Shown in pieces: positions 18,434 to 31,107 of a DNA stretch of 64,000 nucleotides. The first letter of the stretch is position 1. Every line of letters begins with the position of its first letter. Position numbers and translations under genes: made by a program. Below the pieces are notes generated by a model. The model did no database searches. It was not told the origin of the DNA and was given only the letters and a program-made list of their open reading frames with translations. The DNA is taken from NCBI RefSeq assembly GCF_003862475.1, contig NZ_RRCO01000002.1:496001-560000 (forward strand), given 5' to 3'. This DNA comes from Lachnoanaerobaculum gingivalis. Lineage in GTDB: Bacteria > Bacillota > Clostridia > Lachnospirales > Lachnospiraceae.

Positions 18434-18733
18434 ATGTCAAGTAAAAGAAATCATCACTCAAAACAGTTTAAGCTGGATGCTATCAACTATCGAAATGAAC
18501 ATCCGGATCTTACTCAAGTTGAATGTGCCAAGAATCTTGGCATTGGTGTTAGTACACTTGCCAAATGGGAAAGTCAATTTCGTAATAATGATGGTGACAT
18601 TCCCGTTCGTGGCTCAGGTAACTATCAATCTGATGATGCAAAAGAAATAGCTCTCCTCAAACGTGAGCTACGTGATGCTCAGGATGCTCTTGATGTACTA
18701 AAAAAAGCCATAAGCATTCTGGGGAAAAGTTAA
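18434..18733 (+). CDS. IS3-family transposase OrfA
   Basis: A 99-residue protein with an N-terminal helix-turn-helix (about residues 9-50, including FKLDAINYRNEHPDLT) and a C-terminal leucine-zipper-like helix (ALLKRELRDAQDALDVLKKA). This is the usual OrfA of IS150-type elements, which binds the IS ends. It starts after AGGAGG. Seven As at 18700-18706 provide an A-AAA-AAA slip site that opens the -1 frame into OrfB. Without a full OrfB it cannot support transposition by itself. Confidence 0.85.
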   Translation: MSSKRNHHSKQFKLDAINYRNEHPDLTQVECAKNLGIGVSTLAKWESQFRNNDGDIPVRGSGNYQSDDAKEIALLKRELRDAQDALDVLKKAISILGKS

Positions 18734-19120
18734 CTATTGCTATCTATACAGAGGTTTCTGCAAAGGTAGAGGCAGCTAAAGTAAATGGGCACCGTGTCTC
18801 TACTTCCGGAATGCTTAAATTTTTGGGTGTGTCTCGATCCGGATATCGTTCTTTTCTTAATAGAAAAATATCTTCTGCTATTCAGAGGAAGGAAGCTATT
18901 AAGAAGAATATCCGGCTTATTTATGATGCTTCAAAACAAAACTATGGTGCTCCTAAAATAACCAAAGAACTTCGTAAGTCAGGTGAAACTATTACTGAGC
19001 GCACTGTAGGCAAATATATGCGTGAAATGGGTATTAAAGCCCAATGGATTAAGCCTTTTACTACCACTACCAGAGACTCTGATTTCAGTACTGAACTTAC
19101 AAACATACTTGATGAACAAT
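18700..19120 (+). pseudogene. IS3-family transposase OrfB, 3' truncated
   Basis: The -1 frame from the slip site is open and encodes the N-terminal part of OrfB: GMLKFLGVSRSGYRSFL, NYGAPKITKELRKSGE (the HTH_21 region) and MREMGIKAQWIKPF. The frame leaves IS homology at about 19120, before the rve integrase core. The D, D and E catalytic residues are therefore absent. Confidence 0.8.
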
Positions 19121-19127
19121 TACTCTT

Positions 19128-19534
19128 CTACTCAAAATATTTATCTACCAATTTTTGTAGTTTCCCTTCTTTAGCCGCAGGGATGGTATCTTCTAGAACA
19201 AAGTTCTTTCTACTAATATCTCGAGAAAGATTTCCAAAGATAAAATTAGTGGAAATATTATAGATAAATGGTGAAGGCACAAATCCACAAACTTGATTTT
19301 CTAGGATACGTTTTAAACGTTCTTCAAAATTTGGAAATGTATTTTTCAGACATTTGCTATTATATAATCGCTTAACGAGTTCTGCGATATAGAAGCCTGA
19401 TTTCATGTACAAATCAATAAACGTCTTAGATGGATTATAAAAAAATCCTGGGTTATCTTTTTCAAAATCATCTACCATCCTCTTCACCACTCGTTTAAGA
19501 GTGAAGATCTCGTTGGTATCATTGTATATATCTG
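19128..19534 (-). pseudogene. Fragment of a restriction-modification DNA methyltransferase
   Basis: About 135 codons with NEIFTLKRVVKRMVDD, FIDLYMKSGFYIAELVKRL and ERLKRILENQVCGF, a pattern like the motif I region of large N6-adenine methyltransferases of restriction systems. It has no proper start (a GTG at 19490 is weak) and is cut by the IS3 fragment before the NPPY/F region. It overlaps the stop of the preceding gene by a few bases. Family call is from pattern memory and moderately sure. Confidence 0.5.
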
Positions 19535-20314: not shown

Positions 20315-20658
20315 CTACCTCTCGAATATAATTTTTTCTACCCCTGTTTTAGGATCTATTGTTGTAATCTTAGTAACATTTGGATTGGCCTTCAATCTTG
20401 GTAATTCGATATTTTCCCAAATATTTCCTGGTCTTAGTTCGCTACCAACTACAGCTCTTATTTCACCAGATACTTGCTCTGCGTAAACATTCGAAGCTTC
20501 CTCCCAAGCTGTTACACTTGAAGGAGCATTAAAATCCCATTCAGGCATTACAATATTCGTATCATCAATCGTAGATTCTAATGTAACTCCTCCTTTATTT
20601 TTTGCTATTTTTTTCGCAACATCCATTCCTCCAATACTATCTGTTTGTCCTGACCAGA
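20315..20658 (-). pseudogene. Orphan polymorphic-toxin tip (FWSG-type C-terminal domain)
   Basis: The frame is open from about 20658 with FWSGQTDSIGGMDVAKKIA, GGVTLEST, TAWEEASNVYAEQ and GNIWENIELPRLK. This is a C-terminal toxin domain type that I associate with Rhs/hemagglutinin-like toxins. There is no carrier protein in front; the frame runs directly into the end of an array gene. An internal ATG at 20626 would make 103 residues. It looks like a displaced toxin tip kept beside its Imm74-like immunity gene. Confidence 0.6.
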
Positions 20659-20659
20659 A

Positions 20660-20902
20660 TCATCCTTTTTTATACATATCCGGGCTTTTATAAATCCACC
20701 CTACATCAGGCTCAAGCATATTATATATTGCGTCAATATGATGTTTTCTGAATGTGTAACCGTTATCAACATAGAATGCGCTATTTGGGTATTCTTCCAT
20801 ATATCTGTGTACTATCTCCAATATGGTAAGTTCTATTCCAATCATATCCGGAAAGCGAAAGAAGGTAACAAGCTCATTTTTTCTTGATTTTCTTGTGAAA
20901 AC
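20660..20902 (-). pseudogene. Array gene 2, alpha type: C-terminal half (split by IS110 element)
   Basis: Continues the gene whose first half is at 22767-22991. It encodes VFTRKSRKNELVTFFRFPDM, HRYMEEYPNSAFYVDNG and WIYKSPDMYKKG, near-identical to the alpha gene at 44337-44804. The two halves total 468 bases, the exact length of that intact copy, so the gene was whole before insertion. Confidence 0.85.
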
Positions 20903-20927
20903 CTCCTCATATAATCAAGTATTTTTT

Positions 20928-20940
20928 GTTGAAAATTCAA
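20928..20940 (+). repeat. Left subterminal inverted repeat of the IS110 element
   Basis: GTTGAAAATTCAA; its reverse complement matches the copy at 22728-22740 in 12 of 13 positions. Confidence 0.7.
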
Positions 20941-21363
20941 GGTTTTTTGACCTTGTCTGTCTCAGTAAATAAGCCAGAGTTATGAACATTTCGGTGTATC
21001 TGGTACTGAAATAGCGGTAAAAGGGTACACGAAATAAAACGTCATTGTTTTTCGCTTTACTGGCCTTGTGTATACCCATCCCTCTATGGCAGCTAACCTC
21101 CTATATCCACCAGGATCATCTCTGTCTCCAGAGGTCCTAACTTCCTTCGTCCTGCCTGCCCATAACCAGGGTGTCAGCTATGCTCCTTTACGGGGTCATG
21201 CCCCATGGTTACAATTCCTGCCGACTACCGGCTCATTCTTTGTATTGTTGATTACTGACTCGCTTCCTGTACCAGCACTTTGATCAGTGGACGTTATCTG
21301 CTACATTCTGCTTTGTTTAGTGACCTCCCATAGGACGGCCGCTGTATTGATTACATTGTACGC
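20941..21363 (-). ncRNA. Candidate bridge-RNA region of the IS110 element
   Basis: A 423-base non-coding stretch after the recombinase stop, more GC-rich than the host DNA, with several possible stems. In IS1111-type elements the bridge RNA is encoded on this side of the gene. Bases 21095-21106 read AACCTCCTATAT, against AACCTCCTTTAT in the uninterrupted target: 11 of 12 match across the insertion point. No RNA fold was computed. Confidence 0.4.
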
Positions 21364-22656
21364 TTATGCTACCTGCAGATATACTGCCGGTCTCTTTATA
21401 TCACCAACCAGCTTTTTGGGATCATAGTCCACACCCTTGGTCAGCATTGCAAAGAAGACACGGAGCAGCTTTGCCGCCACAGCCATCAGCGACTGCATCT
21501 TCTTTAATGGATTCAGCTTTCTGGTTGTATAGTATGAGTGGAGTTCCCTGAATTCCGGATTCTTTGACACAAGAGACATTGCAACCTCGAAGAGCAGATA
21601 TCTTAGTCTCTTTCGACCTCGTCTGCTTATTGTTGTCTCACCCTTATGTTTACCCGAACTATTCTCAACCAATGCTAAACCTGCAAGTTTCTGCAGTTCT
21701 TTGGGGTTATTGAAGCGGCTTATATCGCCCACTTCAGCCAGGAATCCCGACACCGTCTTGATTCCTACTCCCTTAATTTCCAACAGCTTTTCAGCCATTG
21801 GAATCTTTTTTACCAGCTCTTCAATCAGAGCTACTACTTCCTGAAGACGAGTATTTCCGGACTCATAATCCTCCAGCAGCATACGGATTTCCATCCTTGC
21901 AGATATTTCACCTTCTTTGCTTCCAACACTGTGCTCAGCAGCTTCTATCAGGGTCTTTGCCCTCGCTTTCCCAACTGCTCTCACCTTCGCATCTCGCCAG
22001 ATTTGGTTCACACCATCGATACCCAACGTCAGGATATCTTCCGGAAGTGGCGCCACCTTGAGAATCAGCATTCCGCTTTTAGCATCCGGCTGCCCGTACA
22101 CTGTTTTGTATTCAGGAAAATATATATTGAACCAACGACTGATCCTATTCTGAATTCTTGTAAGCTCCGCTTGTAGCTGAAATCTCATGTTAGATGCAGT
22201 TCTAAGATCTGCATAAACACCCTCAGGCAGGTATGGGATCATGTAACGTCCCCCTCTAACTAGTCCTGCTATGACTTTCGGATCTTTACGATCGTTCTTT
22301 GTCGGATTGTTATCGTCGAGTTCTTTTGATTTCTTTACATGATGAGGATTCACAAGAACCGGCTTCATCTCGTTGTCCTGAAGGAACTTACCAAGATTGA
22401 ACCAGTAGTGGCCGGTAGGCTCCATTCCCGGAACCACCTTGTCCTTACCATGCTTTTCTTTGATGTCCAGAATCCATGCCTTAAACATCACGAATCCGGC
22501 CTCATCATTACTAAACTTAAACGGTTTCTTAGAATACTCGATTCCTCGGTAATCAAAAGCTCTTGCATAATGCGTTTCACTTCCGACATCGATTCCGAGC
22601 ACCAAAGTAGTTTCTGTAATTGCTTCAATTTTTGTATTTTGTGTGTTAGACTTCAT
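21364..22656 (-). CDS. IS110-family recombinase (transposase)
   Basis: A 430-residue DEDD recombinase. The N-terminal RuvC-like domain has D23 in LGIDVGSE, E79 in GMEPTGHYW, and D122/D125 in NDRKDPK. The C-terminal Transposase_20 domain has KGVGIKTVSGFLAEVGD and a serine-bearing ENSSGKHKGE segment. Such enzymes move the IS as a circle guided by a bridge RNA. All expected residues are present, so it may be active. It sits inside an array gene in the same orientation as that gene. Confidence 0.93.
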   Translation of the reverse strand: MKSNTQNTKIEAITETTLVLGIDVGSETHYARAFDYRGIEYSKKPFKFSNDEAGFVMFKAWILDIKEKHGKDKVVPGMEPTGHYWFNLGKFLQDNEMKPVLVNPHHVKKSKELDDNNPTKNDRKDPKVIAGLVRGGRYMIPYLPEGVYADLRTASNMRFQLQAELTRIQNRISRWFNIYFPEYKTVYGQPDAKSGMLILKVAPLPEDILTLGIDGVNQIWRDAKVRAVGKARAKTLIEAAEHSVGSKEGEISARMEIRMLLEDYESGNTRLQEVVALIEELVKKIPMAEKLLEIKGVGIKTVSGFLAEVGDISRFNNPKELQKLAGLALVENSSGKHKGETTISRRGRKRLRYLLFEVAMSLVSKNPEFRELHSYYTTRKLNPLKKMQSLMAVAAKLLRVFFAMLTKGVDYDPKKLVGDIKRPAVYLQVA

Positions 22657-22727
22657 TGTAGATACCTCTCTGTTTGATAAGATTTACCAACCTGCCAGTC
22701 AGTAGTCTTATTTTACTCTGAGGTATT

Positions 22728-22740
22728 TTCAATTTTCAAC
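22728..22740 (-). repeat. Right subterminal inverted repeat of the IS110 element
   Basis: Reads GTTGAAAATTGAA on the minus strand and pairs with the copy at 20928-20940. Confidence 0.7.
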
Positions 22741-22766
22741 GTCCACCATTTAAATTATACAGGAAG

Positions 22767-22991
22767 CTCCTTTATACCTACATAAGCATAAATTTGAATC
22801 ATTGGTGCGGGATCTTCTTCATCAAAAAAATCGTATTCATTATCTTCCTTAGACAGTATAATAATACAATCTCTTTTACGTATATTCACTATTCTATGGT
22901 AGTTCATAGCATCAAGTATTTCTTGCATCCTGTCATCAACAAATATATTTCTTTCCTCAAATTTTTCTAATATTCTTCCCTCACATATCAT
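22767..22991 (-). pseudogene. Array gene 2, alpha type: N-terminal half (split by IS110 element)
   Basis: Starts MICEGRILEKFEERN after AAGGGG and reads through IQIYAYVGIKE to the insertion point; into the IS it would end as a 78-residue product. The rest of the gene is at 20660-20902. The start matches alpha genes at 43799-44272 and 44337-44804. Confidence 0.85.
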
Positions 22992-27608: not shown

Positions 27609-28112
27609 GTTTCTCACCCCCTTTCTGTCTAGGAAAGGAAGTGAGCCTTGCTCGTTTATCTCCTTTCACTCTTAGTCCCAATGTGAAAGGGGGATTTGTT
27701 GCATTACTGATAAATAAACTTTGTAAAAAAGTTCTGAATAGCCAAAAAAGCATATAAACAGATTTATTTCTCTGTTTACATGCTTCTGTTATTCTATCTA
27801 TATGATTTATAAAACCACATTGGTGGACGTACTTATCTATTGCAGATAGACGACTTTTTTTGACAAGAACCCAATGTAAGGAAATTTATTGTATATGATG
27901 TACTTCATGGCGACGTTGACCTCCAACAAACCGCCATTTGGAAGTAATATACAATATTTTAACAGCGTAAATAGCACTACCATATAACGGTTTTTTTTAT
28001 TGGCGTTTAGTAGTGCTTTTTATTAAATATAAACCTATAAACCATATAACACGTTTTTCTATACCTGTTTTTAATTCAGTAGGAACAATAAAATGTATAG
28101 AGGTGGTCTACT
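27609..28112. other. Tn916 regulatory region between orf7 and orf9
   Basis: About 500 bases without a convincing gene. It carries the divergent promoters for orf7 (minus) and orf9 (plus). ATTGTATAT (27889-27897) pairs with ATATACAAT (27947-27955) around GTACTTC/GAAGT inner arms, forming a large hairpin. A terminator-like hairpin with T-run is at 27973-28022. Confidence 0.5.
27973..28022 (+). terminator. Terminator-like hairpin upstream of orf9
   Basis: AGCACTAC (27973-27980) and GTAGTGCT (28010-28017) followed by TTTTTATT on the plus strand. No annotated plus-strand gene precedes it, so it may end a small RNA or leader transcript. Confidence 0.5.
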
Positions 28113-28466
28113 ATGCGTAAAAAAGAAGATAAATATGATTTTAGAGCCTTTGGTTTAGCCATTAAAGAAGCTCGATTGAAACGAGGTTTAACTCGTGAAC
28201 AAGTGGGAGCATTGATTGAAATTGACCCACGGTACTTAACTAATATTGAAAATAAAGGGCAACACCCCAGCATACAAGTTCTTTATGACCTTGTATCGTT
28301 ACTTCATGTTTCCGTTGATGAATTTTTCTTACCTGCTAATAACTTGGTAAAAAGCACCCGACGATTACAGATAGAGAAATACATGGATAGCTTTACAGAC
28401 AAAGAACTATCCTTAATGGAATCTTTAGCCAGCGGTATCAACGAAGCAAGAAACATCGAAGACTAA
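28113..28466 (+). CDS. Tn916 Orf9, XRE-family repressor
   Basis: A 117-residue protein with a helix-turn-helix at about residues 14-70 ([37 protein letters not shown]). It is the only clear plus-strand gene of the element. It is thought to repress orf7 transcription and is itself lowered when tet(M)-region transcription rises. Preceded by AGAGGTGG. Confidence 0.9.
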
Positions 28467-30746: not shown

Positions 30747-30833
30747 TCAAAAGCCCAAAAGGGCATAAAAATCCCAGTGATAAATACTCTTATCACTGGG
30801 ATTTTTATGCATAACCATAGGCATACAAAGCAT
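30747..30833 (-). CDS. tet(M) leader peptide (Orf12)
   Basis: A 28-residue peptide, MLCMPMVMHKNPSDKSIYHW at the start and ending LLGF, read just before tet(M). Its coding sequence contains the attenuator hairpin. When tetracycline slows ribosomes on the leader, the terminator is thought to be prevented and tet(M) is transcribed. Confidence 0.85.
   Translation of the reverse strand: MLCMPMVMHKNPSDKSIYHWDFYALLGF
30766..30806 (-). terminator. tet(M) attenuator hairpin
   Basis: ATCCCAGTGATAA (30771-30783) is the perfect inverse of TTATCACTGGGAT (30790-30802), with A/T runs on both sides, inside the leader peptide gene. Acts as the transcription attenuator. Confidence 0.88.
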
Positions 30834-31107
30834 ACAGATATTCTCCGGATACTTTAGAATCACATGATAAAGGTATTCTTAAACTGGGTACAAAAAACTA
30901 AGCCCTCCTAAAAAAGGACATCCAATTATTTGTTCCCACTATCAAATTGACAGTTTATTTAAGAATACCTTGCCGCATATTTATTAACTCCTTTTAAATA
31001 GATACTTAAATAATAGCACGTAAGAGCATATTTGTAAAGGAATCTCCAATTTTTTATCAAAGAGAGTACGTGATTACAAAATAGCTGTAATAATGTACCA
31101 ATATTTG
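30834..31107 (-). promoter_or_regulatory. tet(M) upstream region with mini-ORF
   Basis: About 270 bases between orf13 and the leader peptide, holding the tet(M) promoter. AAGGAG at about 30990 precedes a seven-codon frame, MRQGILK (30978-30955). GGTATTCTTAAA (in that frame) is repeated inverted as TTTAAGAATACC nearer the leader, giving a second structure that could refold with the attenuator. Confidence 0.5.

What the first reader, a model, noticed from the sequence alone, without database searches (positions are those of the whole stretch)
20941..21363. Possible bridge RNA with a target-matching segment 3' of the IS110 recombinase
IS110-family enzymes use a non-coding bridge RNA that pairs with target and donor; in the IS1111 group it lies 3' of the gene. 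Here the long non-coding side is 3' and the element has subterminal inverted repeats. Bases 21095-21106 (AACCTCCTATAT) match 11 of 12 bases of the uninterrupted target (AACCTCCTTTAT) across the insertion core CTCCT. This could be the target-binding guide. A chance match in about 430 bases is possible but not likely.
Basis: partly seen in the sequence, partly recalled or inferred. Interest (0 to 1): 0.7.

Follow-up and report, generated by a model that had tools for sequence, protein, structure and literature searches.

The report
Jumping gene guided to ribosome-binding sites
A bacterial insertion element carries, just after its recombinase gene, a two-loop guide RNA that appears to steer it to ribosome-binding-site-like sequences; the segment first flagged as the target guide is really the part that recognises the element's own end, and the true target guide lies about 80 bases away.

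Summary
The match is real: bases 21095-21106 match the uninterrupted target at 11 of 12 positions. A bridge RNA 3' of the IS110 recombinase is well supported, but the role given to that segment is wrong. I compared about 75 related elements. The segment (minus strand AUAUAGGAGGUU) is nearly invariant while targets change. It shows no within-clade association with left flanks, and its last five bases equal the element's own right end in all seven clades (AGGAG, GGGAG or GAGAG). It is therefore the left donor guide; it resembles the target because donor end and target share AGGAG. The real target guides are in the other loop: 21183-21190 (UAAAGGAG, 8/8 with the window's left target) varies with left flanks (0 of 10,000 permutations as high), and 21207-21214 varies with right flanks in one register only (2 of 10,000). 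Thirteen more distant elements, mostly from Bacillales, agreed. Most relatives insert at Shine-Dalgarno sequences: 44 of 57 have a start codon 4-13 nt downstream, against 24% background. RNA position and guide order fit IS1111 elements; the 430-aa recombinase and the lack of canonical subterminal repeats do not. RNA expression and activity were not tested.

The parts
20903..22766 (-). Whole insertion element, 1864 bp counting one copy of the AG core
   Evidence: Two identical copies and about 40 relatives share exactly these ends
21364..22656 (-). IS110-family recombinase, 430 aa, RuvC-like DEDD domain plus Transposase_20 domain
   Evidence: PF01548 and PF02371, NF033542; D23, E79, D122, D125, S334, G335 invariant in 16 relatives
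22767..22768 (-). AG core at the left junction
   Evidence: Only AG is shared by both junctions in clades with other ends
20903..20904 (-). AG core at the right junction
   Evidence: As for the left core
22767..22774 (-). Left target with core, TAAAGGAG, in the flanking DNA
   Evidence: Identical to the left target guide, 8/8
20895..20902 (-). Right target, GTTTTCAC, in the flanking DNA
   Evidence: Right flank; paired in part by the right target guide
21085..21231 (-). Core of the bridge RNA: target loop then donor loop
   Evidence: Conserved far beyond close relatives; proposed structure 97.6% paired against 27-52% when slid, 21 cells with two-sided change against 5.1 shuffled
21207..21214 (-). 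Right target guide (RTG), 5' strand of the target loop, UUGUAACC
   Evidence: Covaries with right flanks in one register only: RT2-8, 2/10,000; 8/8 match in L144, L145, L149
21192..21204 (-). Apical hairpin of the target loop, GGGGCAUGACCCC
   Evidence: Two pairs with compensatory changes (helix 3)
21183..21190 (-). Left target guide (LTG), 3' strand of the target loop, UAAAGGAG
   Evidence: Covaries with left flanks within clades: 0/10,000; blind set 1/20,000
21139..21146 (-). Right donor guide (RDG), 5' strand of the donor loop, AGGAAGUU
   Evidence: Pairs with AGCTTCCT of the left end; reads AGGAAU where the left end is CATTCCT
21098..21106 (-).
   Evidence: Last 5 nt equal the last 5 nt of the element's right end in seven clades; no overall within-clade association with left flanks
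20913..20918 (-). Promoter -35 (TTGATT) in the right end, predicted to act in the circle
   Evidence: TTGATT and TATAAT are 17 nt apart across the joined ends with one AG (15 nt without the AG core)
22754..22759 (-). Promoter -10 (TATAAT) in the left end, predicted to act in the circle
   Evidence: As for the -35

Best explanation
This is an IS110-family insertion element whose 3' non-coding region encodes a bridge RNA. Inferred cycle: the element excises as a circle, which creates a TTGATT-17-TATAAT promoter that transcribes the recombinase gene and the RNA; the recombinase binds the RNA. The first loop pairs with the target: the right target guide (21207-21214) with the top strand right of the core, the left target guide (21183-21190) with the bottom strand left of it. 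The second loop pairs with the element's own joined ends: the right donor guide (21139-21146) with the left end, the left donor guide (21098-21106, the flagged segment) with the right end. Recombination occurs at a shared AG core. The guides of the window's clade and of most relatives specify Shine-Dalgarno-like sequences (AAGGAG|G), and the right end itself ends in AGGAG, so an insertion leaves an SD-like sequence in front of the downstream gene. Shown by sequence: the ends, the RNA fold, and guide-target and guide-donor covariation. Inferred: transcription, RNA-protein binding, the circle and the strand chemistry.
For: Ends from two identical copies and about 40 relatives. RNA fold supported by covariation. 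Left target guide against left flanks within clades 0/10,000; right target guide against right flanks 2/10,000 in one register and nothing in three others. Further set of 13 distant elements 1/20,000, with 8/8 right-guide matches in three of them and two compensating differences between L144 and L145. Donor guides follow the element's own ends in all clades read. Target guides are hypervariable (0.52, 0.54 identity) and donor guides conserved (0.95, 0.83), as reported for IS621 (PMC11208160). SD targeting 44/57 against 24% background. Recombinase catalytic residues intact.
Against: No RNA or activity data. The single-sequence fold of the RNA core is not better than shuffled. The right target guide is weak in SD-targeting clades. 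Some elements disagree, such as L062. The flagged segment fits the window's own target slightly better position by position than it fits the right end beyond the last five bases.
Confidence: 0.9

Rival explanations
1. One reading: 21095-21106 is the target-binding guide of the bridge RNA.
For: 11/12 match to the window's target; the segment lies in an unpaired loop strand.
Against: The segment is nearly constant while targets vary; 14 other insertions match 6-9 of 12. No overall within-clade association with left flanks (823/10,000; 8930/10,000 for -5..-3) apart from one single position, -6, p 0.008. It changes with the element's own right end in clades B-F, and another segment follows the targets.
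Confidence: 0.05
2. The 3' region is an ordinary regulatory or decaying non-coding tail, and its resemblance to flanks reflects common purine-rich, SD-like motifs.
For: AGGAG is common and near matches occur elsewhere in the window; Rfam has no match.
Against: Two-sided, in-register covariation with targets, including non-SD targets (GGGCAG|TTTAGTTG, AAACTAG, ATAGTAG); hypervariable guides inside a conserved fold.
Confidence: 0.03

Closest known systems
IS1111-group elements with seekRNA (ISEc11, ISPa11, ISKpn4; PMC11187229)
   Same: Guide RNA encoded 3' of the recombinase gene; segment complementary to the top strand precedes the one complementary to the bottom strand; circle-junction promoter; natural retargeting
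   Different: Recombinase 430 aa instead of 330-350; no canonical 11-13 bp subterminal repeats with 7 and 3 bp extensions
IS621 and other IS110-group elements with bridge RNA (PMC11208160, PMC11208158)
   Same: DEDD plus serine recombinase; separate target and donor loops with left and right guides; dinucleotide core (CT, here AG on the coding strand); -35 in the right end and -10 in the left end
   Different: RNA is 3' instead of 5' of the gene; guide order on the coding strand is reversed; PDB matches are only weak (E 3e-06)
IS900 (IS110 family; Doran et al. 1997, cited in PMC8141618)
   Same: Reported to target translation initiation signals
   Different: Only the citation was seen here; its sequence, guides and RNA position were not compared

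Membership tests
IS110 family (broad) | RuvC-like DEDD catalytic domain and Transposase_20 domain with conserved SG | tested here: met
   PF01548, PF02371, NF033542 above cut-offs; DEDD and SG invariant in 16 relatives
IS110 family (broad) | Element-encoded bridge RNA with target and donor guides | tested here: met
   By sequence covariation and structure only; RNA not observed
IS110 family (broad) | Circular intermediate with a promoter formed at the joined ends | not testable with these tools
   A TTGATT-17-TATAAT sequence would be formed; the circle itself needs an experiment
IS1111 group | Long non-coding region and guide RNA 3' of the gene | tested here: met
   456 nt 3' side holding the RNA; about 110 nt on the 5' side
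IS1111 group | Guide complementary to the top strand precedes guide complementary to the bottom strand | tested here: met
   Right target guide 21207-21214 is 5' of left target guide 21183-21190 on the minus-strand RNA
IS1111 group | Subterminal inverted repeats of 11-13 bp with extensions of 7 and 3 bp | tested here: not met
   10 bp exact repeat at 26 and 23 bp, only in the closest clade; other clades at shuffled level
IS1111 group | Recombinase of 330-350 aa | tested here: not met
   430 aa; the range is from PMC11187229
IS110 group (narrow) | Longer non-coding region and RNA 5' of the gene | tested here: not met
   RNA is 3' here; PMC11187229 notes some IS110 elements with a downstream region
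IS110 group (narrow) | Recombinase of 395-455 aa in the subgroup with IS110 itself | tested here: met
   430 aa; no tree with ISfinder members was built
IS900-like targeting | Insertion at translation initiation signals | tested here: met
   44/57 relatives have a start codon 4-13 nt after the core opening at least 25 codons, background 24%; the window copy itself sits inside an open reading frame

The most novel reading that the evidence does not exclude
A distinct, widespread Firmicutes branch of IS110 elements joins an IS110-length recombinase with a 3'-encoded, IS1111-ordered bridge RNA whose guides are mostly tuned to Shine-Dalgarno sequences and whose right end restores an SD for the downstream gene. 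Core strand (AG or CT) and guide order flip together, so the RNA-DNA geometry is the same as in IS621 and only the gene's orientation differs.
Probability: 0.4. Interest if true: 0.65.

Novelty: new member of a known kind. Interest (0 to 1): 0.5.

Why it matters
It gives a worked case in which all four guides of a bridge RNA are placed from natural variation alone, with natural retargeting to several different targets (AAGGAG, AATAG, ATAGTAG, GGGCAG, GTGGCAG, AAACTAG). An RNA-guided element aimed at Shine-Dalgarno sequences has targets in front of many genes of any host and may spare translation of the gene it lands before. The guide map makes this recombinase a directly testable RNA-guided recombinase from Firmicutes. 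It also shows a trap: when donor end and target share a motif, a donor guide can pass for the target guide.

Tried and rejected
Rfam scans of the window and of the region alone found nothing for this RNA. The single-sequence fold of the RNA core was not significant; the longer region was (z -2.40). Automatic consensus folding on 46 sequences missed the closing stem of the target loop because two clades aligned out of register there; realigning 31 well-aligned sequences and testing a stated structure worked. Viral contigs held only two relatives. Literature searches for IS110 or IS900 with Shine-Dalgarno or ribosome binding site found no direct report apart from the IS900 citation. The right ends of L148 and L150 and the right guide of L155 could not be placed with confidence and were not scored. 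Calling the element a plain IS1111 member was rejected after the repeat and length tests.

Full report
What was checked. The element lies on the minus strand. Its gene (21364-22656) encodes a 430-aa IS110-family recombinase with invariant DEDD and SG residues among 16 relatives. The genome holds a second identical copy at C1:181017-182874. Comparing the two copies with about 40 relatives fixes the ends: TATAAAGGAG/CTTCCTG on the left and TATATGAGGAG/GTTTTC on the right, coding strand. Clades with other ends share only AG between the two junctions, so the core is AG (CT on the + strand).

The RNA. The region 3' of the gene keeps nucleotide similarity to relatives whose recombinases are only about 51-58% identical. 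An alignment of 31 copies supports two stem-loops: 97.6% of cells pair, against 27-52% when the partners are slid, and 21 cells have two-sided changes against a shuffled mean of 5.1. The structure was proposed from these sequences, so the slid control favours it; the shuffle control is the better guide. Loop 1 has an apical hairpin at 21192-21204. Loop 2 is closed by UAUGG/CCAUA. Within this conserved RNA two short stretches of loop 1 are hypervariable (mean pairwise identity 0.52 and 0.54, against 0.85 elsewhere), and so is the apical hairpin of loop 2 (0.50). The two unpaired strands of loop 2 are conserved (0.95 and 0.83). A variable target loop and a conserved donor loop is the pattern reported for IS621 (PMC11208160).

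Which segment is the target guide. For 62 elements with a left flank, the loop 1 segment (window 21183-21190) matched the element's own left flank better than flanks of other elements of the same clade: 4.39 against 3.87 of 7 positions, 0 of 10,000 permutations; positions -5 to -3 also 0 of 10,000. The 5' strand of loop 1 (window 21207-21214) matched right flanks in exactly one register (2 of 10,000) and in none of three others. Against other insertions of the closest clade it matches 6-9 of 12. Its last five bases equal the last five of the element's own right end in seven clades: AGGAG, GGGAG or GAGAG, with two damaged or shifted right ends (L083, L036) as exceptions. Likewise the 5' strand of loop 2 reads AGGAAG where the left end is CTTCCT and AGGAAU where it is CATTCCT. 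Loop 2 therefore reads the donor. The window's target and donor both contain AGGAG, which explains the resemblance.

A further test. Thirteen more distant elements, mostly from Bacillales plasmids, were read at the same guide positions. Left guide and left flank agree over 5-8 contiguous bases (mean 6.8; 4.5 when shuffled; 1 of 20,000). Targets differ from SD sequences in most: GGGCAG, GTGGCAG, AAACTAG. In L144, L145 and L149 the right guide matches 8 of 8. L144 and L145 differ at two bases in the right guide and at the same two bases in the target (TTTAACTG and TTTAGTTG). Limits: the guide segments were located by hand, and L143-L145 had already been seen before this test, so it is not fully blind.

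Target. In clades aimed at GGAG, 44 of 57 insertions have a start codon 4-13 nt after the core that opens at least 25 codons; the background is 24%. The family thus mostly inserts at Shine-Dalgarno sequences, and its right end carries an SD-like purine run. IS900 was reported to target translation initiation signals (Doran et al. 1997, cited in PMC8141618), so the habit is not new to the IS110 family. The window copy sits in AAGGAG inside an open reading frame. A second, 58% related element in the same genome has the guide AAUAG and lies at AATAG sites in most copies.

Affiliation. RNA position and guide order (right guide first) are those of IS1111 seekRNAs (PMC11187229). The recombinase length and the lack of canonical subterminal repeats are not. 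The same paper notes IS110 elements with a downstream non-coding region, and this may be that group. On the strand where the core reads CT, the guide order equals that of IS621; that the RNA-DNA geometry is therefore shared is my inference.

Not shown: transcription of the RNA, its binding to the recombinase, circle formation and recombination.

Noticed in passing
G000:C5:242645-243925, C6:112919-114199, C1:926779-928059 (L140, L141, L005): A second related element (58% identical recombinase) is present three times in the same genome with a different left target guide (AAUAG) and mostly AATAG targets, so two guide specificities coexist in one genome.
   Followed up: yes
window 20580-20605 and L005: The window holds what looks like an uninterrupted paralogue of the site into which one of those elements (L005) inserted, AAATAAAGGAGGAGTTACATTAG; it supports insertion at a single AG core without target duplication.
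   Followed up: partly
L144, L145, L146, L147, L149, L151-L153: Bacillales relatives share a longer non-SD target of the form GGGCAG|TTTAGTTGAA, in some after a T-rich stretch that looks like a terminator; what this target is was not worked out.
   Followed up: no
window 18434-19263: Open reading frames that look like pieces of an IS3-type transposase (orfA-like and a truncated orfB-like), judged by eye only.
   Followed up: no
window 30787-30951 and 27896-28125: Strong Rfam matches to sRNA_0030 (Enterococcus sRNA 30) and SQ2397, in a genome whose searched family relatives look like Lachnospiraceae.
   Followed up: no
L062, L071: Element with left flank GTGGGAAG that does not fit its left target guide UUCAAGAG; an exception to the guide-target rule.
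   Followed up: no
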